A stretch of 50,791 bases of DNA from a virus: IMG/VR virus record IMGVR_UViG_3300031576_000065, positions 1-50,791 of that record, one strand, 5' to 3'. Below the pieces are notes generated by a model. That model had not been told where the DNA came from and searched no databases. It worked only from the letters and a program-made list of their open reading frames with translations. The position numbers and the translations under genes were made by a program. Numbering within the stretch: position 1 is the first letter of the stretch; the number at the start of each line of letters is the position of its first letter. Positions 1 through 50,791 of this stretch are shown piece by piece.

Positions 1-235
1 GAATTGCTGCATCTGCCAGCTTGACCTGAATTTCCTGGGCCTTAAGCTGCATATCCAGTGGAGTAAGCGGGTCATTCCCCGCCTCGTCCTGGTCGATCTT
101 ATCAATGCTATCGGACACCCAGGTTTCAAGCGGCGGCTCCTGCATATCCTCTGCTGTAACGTCGATACCTGCGCGATCCAGGATCTTCGCTGTAGCAGTA
201 GGCCCGGCCGTGCTCTTGATCTGCAAGGTCGGTGT
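1..235. repeat. Terminal direct repeat, left copy
   Basis: These bases match the last 235 bases of the window at all but one position (A at 128, G at 50684). The difference is a silent Leu codon change in the portal gene. The portal frame runs through the joined copies without a break. This is what overlap of a circular or circularly permuted assembly looks like; a real 235-bp terminal redundancy in the virion cannot be excluded. Confidence 0.95.
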
Positions 236-5484: not shown

Positions 5485-6030
5485 TTAATGAGTATGATGT
5501 GGTACATGAGGATCTTGGTACAAACTTGCAGCCCCCCCCGCAAGTGACGGAACCTCAAATTCTGCAAATGATATATCTGCACGGGCATTTACGAAAGGTA
5601 CCTCAAACTCAGCCCAGGATACTTCCGCTCTAGCTCCTGTAAGAGGAACTTCAAATTCAGACCAAGAAACATCTGCTCTTGCATTAGTTGTGGGTATCTC
5701 AAACTCAGCCCAAGAAACATCTGCTCGTGCACTAAGAAATGGTATCTCAAACTCTGCCCAAGAAATATCTGCACGGGCATTAAGAGTCGGAACCTCAAAT
5801 TCTGCCCAGGAAATATCTGCCCGTGCATTTGCTGTAGGTACCTCAAACTCAGCCCAAGAAACATCTGCTCGTGCATTGAGAAAAGGTACTTCAAATTCTG
5901 CCCAGGATACATCAGCACGTGCGTTCAATGAGGGGACTTCAAACTCTGCCCAAGAAATATCTGCACGAACATCAACATTGGTTCCATGAAAGTATATTGG
6001 GTATATATACCCTCGCCCTAACCGGGCCAT
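5485..6030 (-). CDS. Protein with nine tandem 16-residue repeats
   Basis: 181 residues: a 20-residue head (aromatic, YIYPIYF), nine back-to-back 16-residue units at residues 21-164, and a His-rich tail ending HVPHHTH. The unit is close to ARADVSWAEFEVPFLN. Trp, Phe, Glu and Pro positions are nearly fixed and the two or three residues after the Pro vary. Each unit looks like one or two beta-strands with a Pro turn, so a solenoid or fibrous beta structure is likely, for example a tail spike or fibre shaft or a surface adhesin. It lies among other beta-rich genes. Function not recognised. Confidence 0.75.
   Translation of the reverse strand: MARLGRGYIYPIYFHGTNVDVRADISWAEFEVPSLNARADVSWAEFEVPFLNARADVSWAEFEVPTANARADISWAEFEVPTLNARADISWAEFEIPFLSARADVSWAEFEIPTTNARADVSWSEFEVPLTGARAEVSWAEFEVPFVNARADISFAEFEVPSLAGGAASLYQDPHVPHHTH
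5539..5970 (-). repeat. Nine 48-bp coding tandem repeats
   Basis: Nine in-frame 48-bp units encode the 16-residue repeats. Units differ at many third positions (for example alternative Ser, Ala and Pro codons) while the peptide core is kept. The array is therefore old and under protein-level selection rather than a recent slippage product. Confidence 0.9.
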
Positions 6031-12924: not shown

Positions 12925-13307
12925 TGAGTATCAAATTGTGGTATGATGATGTTCGACCCGCACCTGAGGGCTGGGTGTGGGCTCGTACAAACGACGAGGC
13001 AATTGCACTCCTTTCTTGCAATGACGTAACCCACGCAAGTTTGGATCATGACATGGGAAACCACGATCTACCGGAGGGCACTTACGACGGCGGGCCTAAT
13101 AGCGGATCAGGTATGCCACAGAAGGGGGAGGAAAACGGATACCACTTAGTTCAGTGGATGATCAAAAACGACAAACTCCCAGGTTGGATTCGTGTTCATT
13201 CCTGGAGTCCTTCTGGCGGAGAGCATATGTATCGCGCACTCCTTGATGCAAAGGGGGACAACGTAATCCGTCAGCCCTACAGACCTATGGAGGTTCTAGT
13301 ACTATGA
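12924..13307 (+). CDS. Receiver-like (cREC-type) domain protein
   Basis: 127 residues. LWYDDVRPAPEGW at the N-terminus, ASLDHDMG near residue 40, GYHLVQWM near 77 and VHSWSPSGGEHM near 93 match my recall of the cyclic-phosphate-processing receiver-type family found in many phages. Conserved Asp pairs suggest metal-dependent chemistry on a phosphate ester. It overlaps its neighbours by a few bases, between PRTase-like and SLOG genes, which supports a joint role in nucleotide metabolism or signalling. Family call from recalled motifs only. Confidence 0.7.
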   Translation: MSIKLWYDDVRPAPEGWVWARTNDEAIALLSCNDVTHASLDHDMGNHDLPEGTYDGGPNSGSGMPQKGEENGYHLVQWMIKNDKLPGWIRVHSWSPSGGEHMYRALLDAKGDNVIRQPYRPMEVLVL

Positions 13308-13678
13308 GAGTTCTCGTAACGGGTTCATGTGCGTGGAAAGATAAAGAAGCTGTATACGAGCGACTATCCAAGTTGTCTTCTAACACAACCATCATTCACG
13401 GCTGCTCGATGGGGGTTGATACTTTCGCAGGATCTGCAGCCAAACGCCTGGGCTTCAAGGTGGAGGAGTTTCCGCCGGACTATGAAATTTATGGTAAGCA
13501 AGCCAGCGCCAAGCGCAACATCGCCATGACCGAAGCCGAGCCCGACATCTGTATTGCGTTCTGGAATGGAAAATCACACGGGACGTTCCACACGATGTAC
13601 GAAGCCATTATCAGAAACATTCCTGTGGACGTTGTGATGGAAAAAACGCAGGTAAAGCAACTTGCGTTTCAGGTCTGA
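13304..13678 (+). CDS. SLOG-domain protein (YspA/DUF2493-type)
   Basis: 124 residues, a single Rossmann-like domain: MRVLVTGSC at the N-terminus, then IIHGCSMGVDTFAGSAAKRLG (residues 31-52; the Gly-rich ligand loop followed by Asp), a basic KRNIAM helix, and CIAFWNGKSHGTFHTM near residue 80. SLOG proteins bind nucleotide-like ligands; family members are linked to ADP-ribose- or nucleotide-derived signals. It overlaps the cREC-like gene (ATGA) and is one of three SLOG-type proteins in the genome. Confidence 0.8.
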   Translation: MRVLVTGSCAWKDKEAVYERLSKLSSNTTIIHGCSMGVDTFAGSAAKRLGFKVEEFPPDYEIYGKQASAKRNIAMTEAEPDICIAFWNGKSHGTFHTMYEAIIRNIPVDVVMEKTQVKQLAFQV

Positions 13679-19702: not shown

Positions 19703-20194
19703 GTGAAGATCATCAGTGGGTTCTGTAGTGGGGCCGACATTGGAGGCAGTAAAGCTGCCAAGGATATGGGCTTCGAGGTGGGTGGATGGGTGGGGTCAGG
19801 GAGTCTAAACAGCCACCCGGGGTGGTCTGAGTTTGGAGTGGTCGAGGTTTCAACCAGGGAAAATCGGACGATGTATAATGCCCTCTTATCCGATGCCACT
19901 CTTCACTTTAAACAGGGGGACGAGAACGTGACACATTTGAGCCTCACCCAGCACGGTGAGGGGTTTCACTTCCAACGCCCATACTTTGAGGTTGATGTGC
20001 GGGACTATGACCACATGATTTCTGACAGCGTGGTTATGGCCTTTCAAAAGTGGCTAGACTATGAACAGCCTCAGGTTCTCAACATCGCAGGCAACGCAGA
20101 CAAACGCATGGAGTCAGTTGTTTACGACTTTATGACAAGGGCCTTGACAAACCGTTCACCATCTGTTACTCTTAAGGAAGCCGCTCCCCAATAG
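19703..20194 (+). CDS. SLOG-family protein (YpsA / putative molybdenum carrier-type)
   Basis: 163 residues from GTG 19703, behind AAGAAAGGGGTGAG. KIISGFCSGADIGGSKAAKD at the N-terminus is the Gly-rich SLOG ligand loop with an Asp. A GWV-type turn near 29, STRENRTMYNALLSDATLHF near 51 and IAGNADKR near 133 fit the longer YpsA-type family. It probably binds a nucleotide-like ligand. It is the first gene after the repeat-containing promoter and is likely expressed strongly. Second SLOG-type protein of the genome; one copy of the promoter motif lies in its 3' end. Confidence 0.75.
   Translation: MKIISGFCSGADIGGSKAAKDMGFEVGGWVGSGSLNSHPGWSEFGVVEVSTRENRTMYNALLSDATLHFKQGDENVTHLSLTQHGEGFHFQRPYFEVDVRDYDHMISDSVVMAFQKWLDYEQPQVLNIAGNADKRMESVVYDFMTRALTNRSPSVTLKEAAPQ
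20144..20172 (+). promoter_or_regulatory. Sigma70-type promoter inside the SLOG gene end
   Basis: TTGACA at 20144, 17 bases, TACTCT at 20167. Same spacing and a similar -10 box (TACnCT) to the promoter at 19510. It would drive the secreted HExxH protein and the replication genes. A short non-coding leader of about 100 bases follows. Confidence 0.6.
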
Positions 20195-22349: not shown

Positions 22350-23270
22350 ATGTATCTCGCGCTAGATACTGAAACTACGGGCCTAGGCTTTTGGGATACG
22401 GCGTTCTGTGTTTCCGAAGCGTTCAGGGACGAGGGAGAGCTAATCTCCAACGTGTATTACCTGCCCCACCCAGAAGCAATCTTCGTGTGCAAGGAATTAG
22501 TGTTTCACAATGCCAAGTTTGACGTGCAGAAGCTAGTCCTCGCGGGCGCAATCAAAGGCCCACTGGACTGGACGGAGATACACGATACAGAGTGCCTGTC
22601 TCATTTAGTAAATGAACAGCAACCTAAGGCCCTTAAACGCCTTGCAAAAGAACTATTGGGATTGGACACAGATGAACAGGAAGTTCTACGCACGGCTAGA
22701 CGTAAGCTCAAGCTCAAAAAAGCAGACGGGTATGATGCACTTCCACGAGAGGTCTTGGAACCCTATGCTCGAAAAGATGCAGAATTCACGCTTCTTCTGT
22801 TTGAGCATCTTTGGCCGTTGGTTGAAGGCGACCCAGATCTGCTGAGGCTCTATCGAGAGGAGCAGGAGTTGATGGGGGTGCTGTACGATATGGAGCAGCA
22901 GGGGTTGGGGGTTGATATAGAGTACGTCAACAACCACACAAAGGAGTTGGCCGGAAGTATTCTCGAATTGGATTTACGTTTGAGAGATATGTCCGGGGAC
23001 GAAAACTTCAACCCTAATAGCCCTATTCAGGTAAAGAAAGTTCTAGCTGAACGGGGACTGGACTTGGAGTCTACCAATAAGAACGTGCTTAAAGCGGTCG
23101 AGGACGAGTTGGTAGATATTCTTCTTCAGCTTAGGCACGACACCAAGCTATATAGTTCATATTTCAAACCACTACAGGCTGAGGTACGAGAGGGAATCCT
23201 TCACCCGAACCATAAGCAATGGGGGACGAAAGGCCGGCGTTTTAGCGCGGGAGCTACAGATGAGGCATAA
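22350..23270 (+). CDS. DNA polymerase family A, N-terminal fragment (exonuclease and start of palm/thumb)
   Basis: 306 residues. The 3'-5' exonuclease is intact: LALDTETTGL (ExoI, Asp6/Glu8), HNAKFDVQKL (ExoII) and YARKDAEFTLLL (ExoIII). The polymerase domain begins with EEQELMGVLYDMEQQGLGVD and reaches HKQWGTKGRRFSAG. The expected continuation is then lost: the frame ends four codons later (ATDEA, stop) and the stop overlaps the next ATG. The rest of the polymerase resumes about 1.57 kb downstream at 24824. Either the gene is split into two polypeptides or the intervening segment is removed from the RNA. Confidence 0.85.
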   Translation: MYLALDTETTGLGFWDTAFCVSEAFRDEGELISNVYYLPHPEAIFVCKELVFHNAKFDVQKLVLAGAIKGPLDWTEIHDTECLSHLVNEQQPKALKRLAKELLGLDTDEQEVLRTARRKLKLKKADGYDALPREVLEPYARKDAEFTLLLFEHLWPLVEGDPDLLRLYREEQELMGVLYDMEQQGLGVDIEYVNNHTKELAGSILELDLRLRDMSGDENFNPNSPIQVKKVLAERGLDLESTNKNVLKAVEDELVDILLQLRHDTKLYSSYFKPLQAEVREGILHPNHKQWGTKGRRFSAGATDEA

Positions 23271-23485
23271 TGGATAAACGAACTAAGAAGTTTCGGAATC
23301 AGGCCCATTTTCTAATCATAAGACCAACAGCTAGGGGAACCTGGACTGTTTGGGGCTACTATTATACCGAATATCCCAAACAAAAATCAAGGGTACAGAT
23401 TAATGAAACAAATCTAACCTTTGAGAACGCTCTTGTTCTCTGGAAAGAAATTTGGGAGGCGTGGTATAGCAATGATGAATTATAG
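23270..23485 (+). CDS. Hypothetical protein of 71 residues inside the polymerase split
   Basis: The ATG overlaps the stop of the polymerase fragment (TAATGG). Basic N-terminus, then an aromatic strand-rich body (GTWTVWGYYYTEYPKQKSR) and a Trp-rich C-terminal helix (LWKEIWEAWYSND). No family recognised. First of six small genes between the polymerase halves. Confidence 0.6.
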   Translation: MDKRTKKFRNQAHFLIIRPTARGTWTVWGYYYTEYPKQKSRVQINETNLTFENALVLWKEIWEAWYSNDEL

Positions 23486-23651
23486 TGGAACTCCGGCAGC
23501 TCTTAGGCCAATTGCTGAGCAGGTCTTGTTATGGGTTAAGGAAGCTGAACCCTATTGGGACGCAGAGGAACTTAGACGAATAGAACTATGTGCATTGGCC
23601 GTGCGAGAATGGTCAATGTTTTTGGAGCTATATGGCCTCAAAATGGATTAG
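23472..23651 (+). CDS. Hypothetical helical protein of 59 residues
   Basis: Start ATG 23472 (or 23475), overlapping the previous gene. Helical, acidic and Leu/Trp-rich (LLWVKEAEPYWDAEELRRIE). The next gene starts inside its 3' end. Function unknown. Confidence 0.55.
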   Translation: MMNYSGTPAALRPIAEQVLLWVKEAEPYWDAEELRRIELCALAVREWSMFLELYGLKMD

Positions 23652-24093
23652 TATAACAGGAAGTAGGAATTACCCGTTTAAGAAAGAAACTTGGGGTACA
23701 CTATCGGCTAATGACCAGTTGGACGCTATTGCCAAGGGCACAGCCCTGGTGCGTTTGAACATGGATCAGATGCCTTCCGAATGGGGTATTGTATCCGGGG
23801 GTGCGAAAGGCCCTGACACATGGGCGATAACTTATGCAGAAGAACAGGGCCGTGAAACATGTGTGTACCCAGCTGAGTGGAGCAAGTACGGCAACGGAGC
23901 CGGGCATCGGCGTAACAAACTGATTGCCACACACGCAGACTCCTGCCTCGTCTTTTGGGACGGGGGCTCTAGTGGAACCACCGGTTTCATAAAGGCAGCC
24001 TACGCGCTGCGTCGAGAGATATTTATCGTAGGACCGACGGGATCACCGTGGGCAATCTATGACCAAACTTATTGGGACAGGCAGGGAAGTTGA
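23632..24093 (+). CDS. SLOG-domain protein (DprA/DUF2493-like)
   Basis: 153 residues from ATG 23632. KWISITGSRNYP at the N-terminus, then WGIVSGGAKGPDTWAITYAE (about 54-73; SGGAxGxD ligand loop), a GHRRNKLIA helix near 98 and CLVFWDGGSSGTTGFIKAA near 113 give all core SLOG motifs. This is the third SLOG protein. Its location between the polymerase halves, with other small genes and an endonuclease, suggests it arrived as part of the insert. Confidence 0.8.
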   Translation: MASKWISITGSRNYPFKKETWGTLSANDQLDAIAKGTALVRLNMDQMPSEWGIVSGGAKGPDTWAITYAEEQGRETCVYPAEWSKYGNGAGHRRNKLIATHADSCLVFWDGGSSGTTGFIKAAYALRREIFIVGPTGSPWAIYDQTYWDRQGS

Positions 24094-24151
24094 ACCTCGT
24101 CCGTCCGATGCCGAACGTAGGTTCTACATAGGAACCGCGAGAGGAGGACTC

Positions 24152-24340
24152 ATGAAGGAGAAGCCATCCAATGGGCAGGTGGGAAAGACTGTCGTTCTCG
24201 GCTCAAGCGGGAACGTGCTCATCCGGCCTGACGGTCTCGTCGCCGAAGCGTGGGGCATCGGACCCAAGGCGGCAAAGCGCGAGAAGCGCGAGTCAGCATC
24301 GTCGCTGCTGCGAAAGACCGTACGCCTGATCGAGATCTAG
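24152..24340 (+). CDS. Short basic protein of 62 residues
   Basis: ATG 24152 has a GAGGAGG site six bases before it, which outranks the upstream in-frame ATG at 24059. Basic and GC-rich compared with its neighbours (GPKAAKREKRESASSLLRK near the end). Function unknown. Confidence 0.6.
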   Translation: MKEKPSNGQVGKTVVLGSSGNVLIRPDGLVAEAWGIGPKAAKREKRESASSLLRKTVRLIEI

Positions 24341-24343
24341 ATC

Positions 24344-24484
24344 ATGAACTACTGGATAATTAAGACGTGGATCATTTTATATACCCTTCTCTTTGATTGG
24401 TGGTACCGTACCTTAGGTCGTAAGTTGTGGTTTCTGATAGGCCTGAGCGTTCTTCTTGCGTTCTATTTGAACCACAAGTTCTAA
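24344..24484 (+). CDS. Small membrane protein of 46 residues
   Basis: ATG 24344 starts three bases after the previous stop. Two hydrophobic stretches rich in Trp, Leu and Ile (WIIKTWIILYTLLF and LWFLIGLSVLLAFYL) are separated by a WWYRTLGRK turn. It could be a two-helix membrane peptide. The TAA overlaps the ATG of the endonuclease. Confidence 0.5.
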   Translation: MNYWIIKTWIILYTLLFDWWYRTLGRKLWFLIGLSVLLAFYLNHKF

Positions 24485-24849
24485 TGGGTAAAGGCATATA
24501 TAAAAGAAAAGCTAGAATCGAAGATGTATTGTTAGTCCAAACAGAGGTAGCGTGGGCTGCTGGATTCTTCGACGGCGAAGGATGGAGTTATCTGAGCAAC
24601 AAAGGATTTCTTTGCATGGGTGTTGGGCAAAAAGATGTCCGAGCCCTTCTTCGCTGGAAGCAAGCTCTTGGGCTTAAAGCTTCTATCTATAAATCAGGCG
24701 GGAGAGAAATGAATCAAATTCGCCTTCACGGTGCTACCGCAAAGCATGTTATGGAGAATATGCTTTGGCCTTTCTTGGGAGAAGCTAAGAAAGAGCAATA
24801 TCTTCTGGTATTGGAGGCTGTCCGTGAACATACAGACGTTGCCACGTAA
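24484..24849 (+). CDS. LAGLIDADG-type homing endonuclease at the polymerase junction
   Basis: 121 residues from ATG 24484 (TAATG overlap); the longer GTG-initiated frame is not used. One LAGLIDADG motif, VAWAAGFFDGEGW (about residues 17-29), and RLHGATAKHVMENMLWPFLG with alternating basic/aromatic strands fit a single-motif enzyme that acts as a dimer. The 3' end (from 24824) overlaps the resumed polymerase coding sequence in another frame. The gene therefore abuts the insertion point exactly, as expected if it mobilised itself, with or without the neighbouring genes, into the polymerase. Confidence 0.8.
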   Translation: MGKGIYKRKARIEDVLLVQTEVAWAAGFFDGEGWSYLSNKGFLCMGVGQKDVRALLRWKQALGLKASIYKSGGREMNQIRLHGATAKHVMENMLWPFLGEAKKEQYLLVLEAVREHTDVAT

Positions 24850-24913
24850 AGATAAAGTGGTAAAACGAGCATTTATTCCAAAATTGGATTATCTATTGTT
24901 TGCGGACTATTGA
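24824..24913 (+). CDS. DNA polymerase family A, segment resuming after the insert
   Basis: The frame gives VNIQTLPRKDKVVKRAFIP and continues to LLFADY. It follows directly from the RRFSAG end at 23252 in family A polymerases and runs up to catalytic motif A. It then meets a TGA at 24911-24913. It has no start codon or ribosome site of its own, so it must be read through splicing, frameshifting or an upstream start within the endonuclease frame. The next segment continues in the +1 frame. Confidence 0.7.
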   Translation: MNIQTLPRKDKVVKRAFIPKLDYLLFADY

Positions 24914-25592
24914 CGATCAGATCGAAATGCGTGTTCTGGCGTACTACATGAGCCAGCTTGGGGACAACAGCATGAGGGATGTACTAGCAGATCCAGACAC
25001 GGATCTACACAATGAGTCCGCCCGTGGTATCTTCCAAATAGACAGAAGCCCTACCGATCCTGAGCGTCAGCTTGGGAAGAACTTGAACTTCTCGATGGTG
25101 TACGGAGGCGGCAAACCAGCCGTCTTGCGTTATCTAACGCAGTTCAACAACGAGGGCGGAAATGTACCTGTCACCTGGAAGTATGCCGCTGAAGTGCTTG
25201 ACCGATTCCATATGCGTTGGCCTGGGATCAAGAGGGTCGTTAGCGCACTAGAGGTTACATACCGTGATCGTGGTTACCTTAAGACGGTGGCCGGGGCCCA
25301 TCTACACCCTGCAACTACTCATAAGATACTGAGTGCAGTAAACCAAAGCAGCGCAGCGGAAGTCATGCGTGCCGGTCTGCGTACATGTCATAGAGAGTTG
25401 CGGGAGTGTGAGTCACACCTGGTCACCGTTATCCACGATGAGTTCGTGTTTGATGTAAAGCTGTCCGAAGTGGACTACCTAATCGAGCACGTACCCACGT
25501 GGATGGACTATCCTAAGATTGGTAAAATTATCCCGGTTACTGTGAGCCTAGAATGGGCTCATACTAATTGGGCTGAAAAGAAAGGGCTTTAA
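24900..25592 (+). CDS. DNA polymerase family A, C-terminal fragment
   Basis: About 226 residues of polymerase: DQIEMRVLAYY (second half of motif A), RQLGKNLNFSMVYGGG (motif B / O-helix) and VIHDEFVFDV (motif C with the catalytic Asp-Glu). A TTG at 24900 opens this frame, but no ribosome site precedes it, so separate translation is doubtful. Compared with the usual DYxQIE, the DNA has four extra bases (TGAC) between the Tyr codon and GAT-CAG, which shifts the frame by +1. Catalytic residues are otherwise intact, arguing against a long-dead gene. Confidence 0.8.
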   Translation: MRTIDDQIEMRVLAYYMSQLGDNSMRDVLADPDTDLHNESARGIFQIDRSPTDPERQLGKNLNFSMVYGGGKPAVLRYLTQFNNEGGNVPVTWKYAAEVLDRFHMRWPGIKRVVSALEVTYRDRGYLKTVAGAHLHPATTHKILSAVNQSSAAEVMRAGLRTCHRELRECESHLVTVIHDEFVFDVKLSEVDYLIEHVPTWMDYPKIGKIIPVTVSLEWAHTNWAEKKGL

Positions 25593-46428: not shown

Positions 46429-46526
46429 CTAAATCCCAGAAGGATCATCCGTCAGTCCATACAGGACCAGCTGCGTGTTCCTCCGCTGAGCGCCGAGGTT
46501 GCAATACTTCGCAAGCACGGCCTCCC
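46429..46526 (-). CDS. Major capsid protein, exon 3
   Basis: 98 nt, completing the Trp codon and adding EAVLAKYCNLGAQRRNTQL, then VLYGLTDDPSGI and TAG. It is too short to be seen as a gene on its own and has no start. Total spliced length 398+749+98 = 1245 nt, an exact multiple of three. The C-terminal strand closes the P-domain of the shell protein. Confidence 0.85.
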
Positions 46527-47174
46527 CTAATGTTTTTCAACATGGACTATATCTTTCTCAAGGGCGCTTGTGGCCTCATCGCTTTCGCTGAGCCTAGTCT
46601 CTAGAGCTTCAAAACGCTGTTGCATAAGTTCAACATCTTTTTCAACATCGCTTCGCTTGCTACGGTATTCCCGCGTTGGTATTTCCAACCACGTATCCAC
46701 CGTTTTCACCCTTTTATTATTTCCTTTGGTGTTACACTGAGCCAATTTCTCTGCTAAATTCTGGTATCTAGATACATATTTATCAGAATTTTTAGAGTTT
46801 TTAGGCTGCCCGGTCTTGGCCTTCATAATCATATTACGCCCATAATGGGCCTGTATTGAAAGCGCAATTTTTACTTGGTCATGCTTTAGGACAATGTAAG
46901 GTTTCATTTCTTCCAAAAAACGCTGAGCGTTTGTCCCCAATAACTCAAATTGCCATTGGGGAGCCCAATGTTCTTTCTGGCTTTTTCTATAGTATAATTT
47001 CCCTTCTGGAAATTCCGCAAGAAATAAACCAATTGGGAGAGGATCAGTTGAAGCAACCGCCACATGCAAACACGGATTGCTTTGTCCAGATTTTGAAACC
47101 TTAATCCAACCTTCTCCATCAAAGAATCCGGCTAGATACGCTCTCATAGAGCGTCTTTTATTATTCATCGCCAT
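46527..47174 (-). CDS. LAGLIDADG homing endonuclease in intron 2
   Basis: 215 residues from ATG 47174 after AGAGAGG (an in-frame ATG follows at residue 3). One motif RAYLAGFFDGEGWIKV near residues 11-26, then DPLPIGLFLAEFPEGKLY and AQRFLEEMKPYIVLKHDQVK, matching the intron 1 enzyme. The TAG stop ends on the final G of the intron, so the ORF fills the intron to its 3' splice site. It probably cuts the unoccupied exon 2-exon 3 junction. Confidence 0.88.
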   Translation of the reverse strand: MAMNNKRRSMRAYLAGFFDGEGWIKVSKSGQSNPCLHVAVASTDPLPIGLFLAEFPEGKLYYRKSQKEHWAPQWQFELLGTNAQRFLEEMKPYIVLKHDQVKIALSIQAHYGRNMIMKAKTGQPKNSKNSDKYVSRYQNLAEKLAQCNTKGNNKRVKTVDTWLEIPTREYRSKRSDVEKDVELMQQRFEALETRLSESDEATSALEKDIVHVEKH

Positions 47175-47213
47175 CTATCGTGGCCTCTCTAGAAATATGT
47201 GCTCAGGAAACCT
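46527..47213 (-). ncRNA. Group I intron 2 in the capsid gene
   Basis: 687 nt. P1: GCUUAGG pairs with CCUGAGC across UUU, with the U-G wobble at the 5' splice site (U at 47214). AAGAUAUAGUCC at 46555-46544 pairs through UAGUC with GACUA near 46599-46595, and a GCGAAAGC loop lies between. The last base is G 46527. Removing it makes T plus GG (Trp), giving GFDAWEAVLAKY. The core is nearly the same as in intron 1, so the two are sibling introns. Confidence 0.9.
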
Positions 47214-47962
47214 AAGCGTCAAACCCAACAACCCACTTGAGAATGTTACCATCCTCGTCAAGCCAGTTCCAGTCGCCGGTATCGAACATCTTCAGATGCT
47301 TCTCGTCGAGGAAGAAGACCTTCCCAAACGGAGCCTGACGATCCGCGATAAACGGCTGACCGAAGTAGTCGAGTGCCTTAAACCCTCCCTTGAGGGTCAT
47401 CGGCTCAACATACCTGACCTGGGGCTGCAGGAGGTTGAATAGCGCACGCTGAATGCCCGGACTGGAAATCATACCAGAGGTATCTCCGCCGGCAACCGTC
47501 ACCGTGTTGACACTCTGGGTCATAAGATCCAGTGTAAGAGCACCCGCAGCGTTAATGCGGTTCACGTCCCACCAACCATTACCCACCGCCGACGCGTCAA
47601 TACCACCAAAGGTATTGGCGGCCGTAGGTATCACCTGTGACAAACCAGCGATCTCATAAGAGACCGAGGAAGCCGCAGCGTTACCCTGGCGAAAGATAAA
47701 GTCAGTACCGGAAGTCATCGTCACAACAGCACCATCAATGGTGATCTGCGCTAGTGAGACGCTGACATCGGTAACCCCACGGTCTGCAAACCGTGTGGTC
47801 GGAGCAGCAAGGGTACCGCCGTCAATCTGCATTCCAATATACACCTCACCCTTACGAAGCGGCTCGGCTGTATTGGTAGAACCGCCCGAGATGGGGCGGA
47901 TATCGATGACGTTGGCAGCGGCAGCGGAACCGGAAGAAATCCGGGCCGTACCGTCCCCGTAT
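47214..47962 (-). CDS. Major capsid protein, exon 2
   Basis: 749 nt. Continues with LYGDGTARISSGSAA, MQIDGGTLAAPTTRFADRGV and QTITIDG-type strands, then YFGQPFIADRQAPFGKVFFL and DWNWLDEDGNILKWVVGFDA, which is the A-domain and P-loop part of an HK97-type shell protein. The exon ends at T 47214 inside a Trp codon; the next bases in the unspliced RNA form TAG. An apparent ORF starting at 47844 is only an internal Met. Confidence 0.88.
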
Positions 47963-48608
47963 CAAGTATATTATACTTGGACTATATCTTTCTCAGGGGC
48001 GCTAGTGGCTTCAACGCTTTCGCTGTGCCTAGTCTCTACACCTTCAAGATGCTCTCGAATCTTTTTTACATCTGATTCTGCTTCATCTTGCTTGGCTCGG
48101 TATTGTCTGGATTTAGAAGGCCAGAGTTCCACCGAGTTCACCCCTAGTGTTCCTTTTTGCTCTTTCATCTTATCGGCAATTTGTTGTGCGCGTCGATGAA
48201 AATGAGCCGGATAAGGAGCATTCATTGGCAACTTTTTACGCCGCCTATCTGCACGATACCGACTTGAGTAGTTTAAAAATGACAGAGCAAGTTTTATCTG
48301 TTCATGCTTATAAACTACATAGGGCTTCATTTCTTCAAGAAACCGTCGAGCGGTTTCTCCATATAGATTGAGCCGATAGGCCCCATCAATTTTTTTAAAA
48401 GTAGCTTCTGGATACTCTTGAAAAAGAAGCCCGATAGGGAGGGGGACAATCATATGAATTCCTACAGAAAGTCTCCACACCCCACCAGTAAAGTAAACCC
48501 CAACAGTTCCCTCGCCGTCGAATAAACCGGCAAAATATGCTTGGAGTTTCTCTCTCTTACGAGTCATACGCCCTCACTTGGGTTTGAAAGGATACAGCCA
48601 TACATTAT
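47963..48608 (-). ncRNA. Group I intron 1 in the capsid gene
   Basis: 646 nt. P1: CAGCUAUA pairs with UAUGGCUG across an AUG loop, with the required U-G wobble at the 5' splice site (U at 48609). Near the 3' end lies AAGAUAUAGUCC (47990-47979), the S element, whose UAGUC pairs with GACUA at 48034-48030 (P7), with a GCGAAAGC P8-type tetraloop between. The last base is G (47963). Removing it joins CT and A (Leu) and restores RQLYGDGTA. The endonuclease ORF occupies most of it. Confidence 0.9.
47971..48567 (-). CDS. LAGLIDADG homing endonuclease in intron 1
   Basis: 198 residues from ATG 48567, with GTGAGGG just upstream. One motif at residues 10-22 (AYFAGLFDGEGTV) with the catalytic Asp, then strands (LPIGLLFQEYPEATF) and ARRFLEEMKPYVVYKHEQIK. 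Homologous to the intron 2 enzyme: the same ETARRFLEEMKPY block and the same C-terminus (TSAPEKDIVQV / TSALEKDIVHV). The end of the frame encodes the P7/S part of the ribozyme core. Single-motif enzymes act as dimers at intronless alleles. Confidence 0.88.
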   Translation of the reverse strand: MTRKREKLQAYFAGLFDGEGTVGVYFTGGVWRLSVGIHMIVPLPIGLLFQEYPEATFKKIDGAYRLNLYGETARRFLEEMKPYVVYKHEQIKLALSFLNYSSRYRADRRRKKLPMNAPYPAHFHRRAQQIADKMKEQKGTLGVNSVELWPSKSRQYRAKQDEAESDVKKIREHLEGVETRHSESVEATSAPEKDIVQV

Positions 48609-49006
48609 AGCTGGCGAGCTAGATCCATCTTAAGGTCGTTTCTCATACCATTGATTTCGCCCTCAAGCACCTTAAGAAAGGCACCTGCCTGGGTCGCAGT
48701 CTTCACGCGGCCAAGTCCAGTGATACGAACGCGTCCGTAGAGCGCCTTGATATCGTAGACCGGCTTTGCATAAAGCTGTGCGCCAGGGTTGGCGAACTGA
48801 ACATTCTCGCCGCGTGCGAACACGCCAGCAGAACGCTGCTTATGGACAGAGAGGACGACCTGGTTGCCCGAGAAATCCTGGGACTCACGGCCGATGCGCT
48901 GAGGAATCAGCACTTCGTTGTTTAGCTGCTCCACAACGGAGCCTAGATAAACATCCTTGAGAACACCAGAAAGAGTCGAGGCAACAGATGCGCCTAGAAA
49001 AGCCAT
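48609..49006 (-). CDS. Major capsid protein, exon 1
   Basis: First 132 codons and two bases of the next, from ATG 49006, behind GAGGAG. The protein (414 residues after joining 48609-49006, 47214-47962 and 46429-46526) opens with a T7-like N-terminus (LSGVLKDVYLGSVVEQLNNE, residues 14-33), then QDFSGNQVVLSVHKQRSAG and the spine helix EINGMRNDLKMDLARQL. HK97-fold capsid proteins normally continue RQLYGDGTA, exactly what exon 2 supplies. In the unspliced RNA a TAA follows after one codon (at 48607), giving a 133-residue stub. Confidence 0.88.
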
Positions 49007-50378: not shown

Positions 50379-50791
50379 TACTTACCGCCTTTTGTGGGCT
50401 TCGGTTTGAAGGAACTCTCTTTGAGCTTCTTCTCGGCCAAGTCCGCTTTCGCGGAAGCCTCGCGCTCTTTGTGCTCTTGAAGGCCAGCGTCAGAGCCCGT
50501 CTTCTGATCGTGCTGCTGCTGACGCTGTTCATTCTGTTGTGCGATGGTGCCAGACCGAATTGCTGCATCTGCCAGCTTGACCTGAATTTCCTGGGCCTTA
50601 AGCTGCATATCCAGTGGAGTAAGCGGGTCATTCCCCGCCTCGTCCTGGTCGATCTTATCAATGCTATCGGACACCCAGGTTTCGAGCGGCGGCTCCTGCA
50701 TATCCTCTGCTGTAACGTCGATACCTGCGCGATCCAGGATCTTCGCTGTAGCAGTAGGCCCGGCCGTGCTCTTGATCTGCAAGGTCGGTGT
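50378..50791 (-). CDS. Portal protein, C-terminal part
   Basis: This is the tail end of the portal frame that begins at 2269. It stays open to the window edge in the same frame as the other copy of the repeat. The C-terminus is charged and Gln-rich (a QQNEQRQQQHDQK stretch) and ends in Lys-rich residues, consistent with the helical barrel and disordered tail of a large portal. An internal ATG gives an apparent 134-residue gene, but that start lies inside the continuous portal frame and is not a real one. Confidence 0.85.
   Translation of the reverse strand, partial: TPTLQIKSTAGPTATAKILDRAGIDVTAEDMQEPPLETWVSDSIDKIDQDEAGNDPLTPLDMQLKAQEIQVKLADAAIRSGTIAQQNEQRQQQHDQKTGSDAGLQEHKEREASAKADLAEKKLKESSFKPKPTKGGK
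50557..50791. repeat. Terminal direct repeat, right copy
   Basis: Second copy of the 235-bp end repeat. The offset is 50,556 bases, which gives the unique genome length. The single mismatch with the left copy suggests variation in the sampled population or a read error. Confidence 0.95.

What the first reader, a model, noticed from the sequence alone, without database searches (positions are those of the whole stretch)
22350..25592. Family A DNA polymerase divided by a 1.57 kb block of six small genes
The N-terminal part stops right after RRFSAG and the next expected residues (VNIQTLPRKD) appear 1.57 kb later, overlapped by a LAGLIDADG gene. The block includes a SLOG protein, two hypotheticals, a basic protein and a membrane peptide, all tightly packed. 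The block is much bigger and richer in genes than a normal intron, so it looks like a mobile cargo cassette or a multi-gene intron.
Basis: partly seen in the sequence, partly recalled or inferred. Interest (0 to 1): 0.85.

Follow-up and report, generated by a model that had tools for sequence, protein, structure and literature searches.

The report
Split phage DNA polymerase filling with genes
In a small clade of uncultured phages the DNA-copying enzyme has been permanently cut into two separately encoded halves, and the gap between the halves collects other genes (one, two, four or six of them, depending on the phage), including a homing endonuclease in two of the four; it is a clear natural series of genes accumulating inside a split essential gene, rather than a giant intron.

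Summary
PolN (22350-23270) ends five residues after RRFSAG. The next residues, NIQTLPRKD, appear 1.57 kb later behind a GTG start (24824), overlapping a LAGLIDADG ORF, with six small genes between. Three independently assembled relatives (IMG/VR) have the polymerase split at the same Pro|Asn bond (Taq N580 / Klenow N675): G001 has one gene between the halves (SLOG), G002 two, and L035 (39% identity) a 32-aa ORF, a phosphoesterase, a TM peptide and a LAGLIDADG gene. The other loci that could be checked, about 120 in two sets, are unsplit. The four split ones are monophyletic (support 0.98). Junction genes are mostly chained by start/stop overlaps, and no catalytic RNA is detectable, although the same tool finds two group I introns in this phage's capsid gene. 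So it is a genes-in-pieces polymerase whose junction accretes genes and was invaded by a free-standing homing endonuclease; the intron reading is not supported. Split phage polymerases are known (Aeromonas phage 25 gp43A/B; OM43 phage MEP401, family A, split ~25 residues away), so this is a new variant. Two surprises: this window's C half carries a 4-nt frameshifting insertion in catalytic motif A, and L035 has no standard start codon for its C half. Assembly of the halves is inferred.

The parts
22350..23270 (+). PolN: 3'-5' exonuclease domain, thumb and palm start of a family A DNA polymerase, ending RRFSAG-ATDEA*
   Evidence: PF01612 E 3.5e-12, PF00476 positions 2-123; 76-79% identical halves in G001/G002
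23270..23485 (+). ORF71, 71 aa, only in this phage; its start overlaps the PolN stop (TAATG)
   Evidence: no phage homologue
23472..23651 (+). ORF58 (MMNYSGTPAAL...), shared with G002, absent from G001
23632..24093 (+). SLOG-domain (DprA/YspA-like) protein, present between the halves in this phage and in both close relatives; its C-terminal tail is lost in this window
   Evidence: PF02481 E 2e-7, phrog_289 E 1e-18, alignment A3
24152..24340 (+). ORF62, small basic protein, GC-rich, good ribosome-binding site; unknown
   Evidence: no phage homologue
24344..24484 (+). 46-aa predicted membrane peptide directly upstream of the LAGLIDADG gene (TAATG overlap); L035 also has a TM-like peptide at this position
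24484..24849 (+). Single-motif LAGLIDADG-like homing endonuclease gene (AWAAGFFDGEGW), not in a detectable intron; 3' end runs 26 nt into PolC
   Evidence: phrog_5046 E 7e-6 for the longer ORF; PF14528 E 0.016, below cut-off; homologue at the same place in L035
24813..24817 (+). GGAGG ribosome-binding site of PolC; the motif GGAGGCT is shared with G002, so it seems kept through the LAGLIDADG insertion
   Evidence: direct comparison
24824..25592 (+). PolC: palm/fingers half of the polymerase, GTG start, begins at the Asn equivalent to Taq N580 / Klenow N675
24911..24914 (+). 4 extra nucleotides relative to all three relatives; frameshift inside catalytic motif A (DYDQIEMR)
   Evidence: L035 compared by eye

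Best explanation
This is a family A DNA polymerase in pieces. In the ancestor of a small phage clade the gene was cut without loss of residues at the loop before the NLQNIP motif, into an N half (exonuclease + thumb) and a C half (palm/fingers) that gained its own ribosome-binding site and start codon. Both are translated from one polycistronic message as two polypeptides that are inferred to assemble into one enzyme. The junction tolerates insertion, so genes accrete there (SLOG; then a 58-aa ORF; then a 71-aa ORF and a 62aa + TM + LAGLIDADG group in this phage; a 32-aa ORF, a phosphoesterase, TM and LAGLIDADG in the distant relative L035). The LAGLIDADG gene is a free-standing homing endonuclease lying just 5' of the PolC ribosome-binding site, present in two of the four lineages. 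Shown by sequence: conserved split, complementary halves, coupling-type overlaps, gene series, no detectable intron RNA. Inferred: one message, assembly and activity of the halves, mobility by homing, order of events.
For: Same split point in four independently assembled contigs. Complementary Pfam coverage 2-123 / 127-380 and junction at Klenow chain position 352 and Taq position 580 from both sides. The four split polymerases form one clade, support 0.984; 108 other loci with an assignable C half are single ORFs. Both halves are under strong purifying selection: W vs G002 pN 0.13 / pS 0.79 for N and 0.06 / 0.65 for C. C half starts ATG/ATG/GTG next to the position where intact relatives have Pro. 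Start/stop overlaps: PolN-SLOG TGATG and SLOG-PolC ATGA in G001; TAATG before PolC in G002; TAATG before ORF71 and before the LAGLIDADG gene in W. No catalytic RNA in the block against a positive control in the same genome. LAGLIDADG at the same position in W and L035, none detected in G001/G002.
Against: The window's C half has a 4-nt frameshift in motif A, so as assembled this particular copy would not give an active palm. L035's C half has no ATG/GTG/TTG at the homologous position (ATC follows the LAGLIDADG stop). No transcript or protein data. The AlphaFold model of PolC alone was poor (pLDDT 49) and gives no support either way.
Confidence: 0.78

Rival explanations
1. The block is an intron (group I, group II or an unknown kind) carrying several ORFs, and splicing restores one polymerase.
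For: The junction is lossless at protein level and falls in a conserved motif. A LAGLIDADG gene is present, and phrog_5046 relatives in this phage sit in group I introns. In L035 the C half lacks a normal start codon.
Against: No Rfam match at E<=10 in the window block; only weak, unrelated matches in L035 and G001, while two group I introns in the capsid gene are found with E 5e-7 and 0.18. In G001 SLOG fills the gap, with stop/start overlaps on both sides. A start codon stands at the junction in three of four.
Confidence: 0.06
2. A LAGLIDADG homing endonuclease made the original split (as mobE did in phage Aeh1 nrdA), was lost in the G001/G002 line and regained in this phage.
For: LAGLIDADG lies exactly at the junction in both W and the most distant member L035. 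Endonuclease-made splits are documented (PMC2988022).
Against: G001 and G002 share the SLOG tail (FxPPxM) running up to PolC, so the last common ancestor of W, G001 and G002 probably had no endonuclease there; two separate invasions of an existing split fit as well.
Confidence: 0.35
3. The six genes move together as one mobile cassette.
For: Dense packing; presence of an endonuclease gene; mixed base composition.
Against: SLOG and the 58-aa ORF are older than the rest. No repeats bounding the block. No second copy of ORF71 or ORF62 in the phage collection.
Confidence: 0.07
4. In this phage the polymerase is a dying pseudogene and the block is debris.
For: 4-nt frameshift in motif A; truncated SLOG tail.
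Against: Across the genes comparable with the relatives only the intron-interrupted capsid gene is otherwise disrupted. The rest of PolC is 92% identical to G002 with pN/pS about 0.09, so any loss is very recent, or the 4 nt are an assembly error or a minority variant.
Confidence: 0.12

Closest known systems
Methylophilales (OM43) phages MEP401/MEP402 split family A DNA polymerase (PMC10580990; OP830906)
   Same: Family A polymerase in two ORFs (exonuclease + N-terminal part; C-terminal part) with a small ORF between; split in most relatives
   Different: Split ~25 residues further on, after NLQNF..KTLFLS and just before motif A, so a separate event; one unknown ORF between, no SLOG or LAGLIDADG; its authors left intron versus split open
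Aeromonas phage 25 / 44RR split gene 43 (gp43A/gp43B) with seg43(25) endonuclease (PMC2988022)
   Same: Replicative polymerase in two polypeptides with a homing endonuclease between them in one phage and not in a relative; the review suggests the endonuclease may have invaded an already split gene; the halves co-purify and polymerise
   Different: Family B polymerase; GIY-YIG endonuclease; no multi-gene cargo mentioned in the review
Phage Aeh1 nrdA split by mobE (PMC2988022)
   Same: Essential gene cut by a homing endonuclease gene, product works as two polypeptides
   Different: Ribonucleotide reductase, HNH endonuclease, a single inserted gene

Membership tests
Split (genes-in-pieces) phage DNA polymerase | Two complementary fragments together covering one polymerase | tested here: met
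   PF00476 2-123 and 127-380; junction at Taq 580 / Klenow chain 352 from both sides
Split (genes-in-pieces) phage DNA polymerase | Split conserved in independent genomes and both halves under purifying selection | tested here: met
   Four contigs, one clade; pN well below pS in both halves
Split (genes-in-pieces) phage DNA polymerase | Second half has its own translation start | tested here: inconclusive
   ATG, ATG, GTG in G001, G002 and W (clear ribosome-binding site in G002 and W); ATC in L035
Split (genes-in-pieces) phage DNA polymerase | The halves assemble into an active enzyme | not testable with these tools
   needs co-expression
Group I / group II intron | Conserved catalytic RNA core within the insert | tested here: not met
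   No Rfam match E<=10 in window 23100-25050, none relevant in L035/G001; positive control at the capsid gene
Intein | Insert in frame with both flanks without stops | tested here: not met
   PolN ends in a stop a few residues after the junction in all four; separate ORFs follow
Free-standing LAGLIDADG homing endonuclease | LAGLIDADG motif and family match | tested here: met
   AWAAGFFDGEGW; phrog_5046 E 7e-6 in W and 3e-8 in L035; Pfam LAGLIDADG_3 only E 0.016, below cut-off
Free-standing LAGLIDADG homing endonuclease | Cleaves the allele lacking the gene and is copied into it | not testable with these tools
   needs a cleavage assay and a mixed infection
Mobile gene cassette | Block present or absent as a unit, with defined ends | tested here: not met
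   Stepwise series in relatives; no repeats bounding the block

The most novel reading that the evidence does not exclude
A split essential polymerase has become a standing cargo port: the junction is kept open by a homing endonuclease that invades it repeatedly, and what lodges there tends to be phage-conflict genes (L035's phosphoesterase matches defence candidate PDC-S10, E 6e-51; the SLOG protein is weakly like ShosA/PsyrA), giving an intragenic equivalent of a defence hotspot inside a replication gene.
Probability: 0.2. Interest if true: 0.7.

Novelty: new variant of a known kind. Interest (0 to 1): 0.5.

Why it matters
It gives a graded natural series (one, two, four, six genes) of what happens after an essential enzyme is split: the break is kept, the halves stay under selection, and the gap becomes a place where genes collect. 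The cut lies next to residues that contact the primer-template (from general knowledge of Klenow/Taq), so it offers a natural split polymerase for testing how two chains rebuild one active site, and a test of whether homing endonucleases cause gene fission or exploit existing splits.

Tried and rejected
Group I/II intron: permissive Rfam scans of the block and of relatives found nothing relevant. Intein: stops and frames exclude it. Programmed frameshift at the 4-nt insertion: considered +1 slippage at TAT TGA C and hopping between the two GAC codons; each changes the D-x4-E spacing of motif A, so neither restores it. The insertion is not a tandem duplication, so a simple endonuclease repair scar is not indicated. 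Whole-block mobility: no bounding repeats. Related LAGLIDADG genes elsewhere (L159-L166): no polymerase match beside any of them; some appear to sit in terminase-gene inserts (by eye). The AlphaFold model of PolC was too poor to use. One DNA-pattern scan for the split start found only the two known relatives. A prokaryote-genome scan gave no split member among loci where both halves could be assigned.

Full report
What is there. PolN (22350-23270) carries the 3'-5' exonuclease domain and the first third of the PF00476 polymerase domain and stops at KGRRFSAG-ATDEA*. The polymerase resumes at NIQTLPRKDK, 1.57 kb on, preceded by GTG (24824) and a GGAGG ribosome-binding site (24813-24817). Six small ORFs fill the gap.

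Relatives. Two IMG/VR contigs are close relatives: G001 = IMGVR_UViG_3300045136_000017 and G002 = IMGVR_UViG_3300012231_000053, with N halves 76-79% and C halves 78-92% identical and collinear with the window over most of their length. Both have the polymerase split at the same place. In G001 only the SLOG gene lies between, with TGATG and ATGA overlaps to the halves. In G002 a 58-aa ORF and SLOG lie between, with TAATG before PolC and a GGGAGG ribosome-binding site. A fourth, L035 = IMGVR_UViG_3300049801_000012, with a 39% identical N half, is split at the same bond and carries a 32-aa ORF (seen by reading), a calcineurin-like phosphoesterase, a TM-like peptide and a LAGLIDADG ORF immediately before PolC.

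Unsplit background. Of 122 further loci with an N-half match, 108 have both halves in one ORF, L035 is the only one in two ORFs, and 13 gave no assignable C-half match, most of them with long single ORFs. The 17 distant loci of the C-half search also run continuously through the site. The alignment shows R-x-S-x-x-x-P|N-L-Q in intact enzymes, with the cut between the Pro and Asn positions. L035's halves meet at Klenow chain position 352 and Taq position 580. A 62-taxon tree puts the four split enzymes in one clade, support 0.984.

Why two proteins rather than an intron. The same permissive Rfam search gives nothing at E<=10 in the polymerase block, and only weak unrelated matches in L035 and G001, yet it detects two group I introns in the window's capsid gene (RF00028, E 5e-7 and 0.18, both below Rfam's gathering score). 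In G001 there is no room for an intron core outside SLOG. In three of four cases the codon just before the Asn is ATG or GTG, where intact enzymes have Pro. Genes in the block are mostly chained by start/stop overlaps. Both halves evolve under strong purifying selection. The exception is L035, where ATC directly follows the LAGLIDADG stop; reinitiation at a rare start codon or an internal GTG is assumed there, and this is the main loose end.

How the junction fills. SLOG is shared by W, G001 and G002, with its tail (FxPPxM) reaching PolC in the latter two. The 58-aa ORF is shared by W and G002. The 71-aa ORF and the 62aa-TM-LAGLIDADG group are only in W. The 71-aa ORF is bounded by similar 15-mers (GATGAGGCATAATGG / GATGAATTATAGTGG; direct reading). 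The LAGLIDADG gene ends over PolC's ribosome-binding motif GGAGGCT, which G002 also has, so PolC expression signals seem to have been kept. With the order ((W,G002),G001),L035, the simplest reading is an old split, SLOG gained in the common ancestor of the three close phages, and a later LAGLIDADG arrival in W. Whether L035's copy of the endonuclease is a remnant of the original splitting event or a separate arrival is open.

The endonuclease. W and L035 LAGLIDADG proteins align with a score of 75 against at most 50 in 1000 shuffles. They and the two capsid-intron ORFs match the same family, phrog_5046. G001 and G002 have no LAGLIDADG_3 match; those contigs may be incomplete. That search also missed the window's own polC-linked copy, so it is a weak test; but at the junction itself G001 and G002 plainly lack the gene.

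A broken copy? The window's PolC has 4 extra nt at 24911-24914 relative to all relatives, a frameshift inside DYDQIEMR. Among all genes comparable with G001/G002, only this and the intron-interrupted capsid gene are disrupted. No plausible recoding restores motif A spacing. Recent mutation, a population variant or an assembly error cannot be told apart here; the ends of the contig, a 235-bp repeat, differ at one base.

Known precedents. Aeromonas phage 25 gp43A/gp43B with seg43(25), and Aeh1 NrdA split by mobE, both working as two polypeptides (PMC2988022). OM43 phages MEP401/402 have a split family A polymerase (PMC10580990), but its cut lies about 25 residues later, just before motif A, so it is an independent case. 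The present clade adds a new cut site, a one-to-six gene series, and a LAGLIDADG gene at the junction in two lineages. I judge it a new variant of a known kind.

Noticed in passing
window 46500-48620 (minus strand): The major capsid-like gene (415 aa and continuous in G001) is interrupted twice by ~650 and ~690 bp inserts, each a probable group I intron (RF00028 E 5e-7 and 0.18) with a LAGLIDADG ORF overlapping the 3' core; the two cores are 77% identical over 130 nt. The capsid name is by eye, not from a family search.
   Followed up: partly
window 24911-24914: Four extra nucleotides frameshift the polymerase C half inside catalytic motif A; neither a tandem duplication nor explained by recoding.
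   Followed up: partly
L035 6054-6677: The phosphoesterase between the polymerase halves of the distant relative matches PADLOC defence candidate PDC-S10 over its full length (E 6e-51).
   Followed up: no
L035 7187-7192: Polymerase C half begins directly after the LAGLIDADG stop codon, in the same frame, with ATC instead of a standard start codon.
   Followed up: partly
window 13304-13678, 19703-20194, 23632-24093: Up to three SLOG-type genes in one phage: cpYpsA at 19703 (PF12694 E 2e-11), the YspA/DprA-like one in the polymerase block, and by eye a DUF2493-like ORF at 13304 (not searched).
   Followed up: no
window 1-235 and 50557-50791: The ends of the contig repeat over 235 bp with one mismatch, so the window is probably a near-complete, circularly assembled phage genome.
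   Followed up: no
window 5485-6030: A protein made of tandem ADxSWAEFEVP repeats, aligning to its G001 counterpart in several registers.
   Followed up: no
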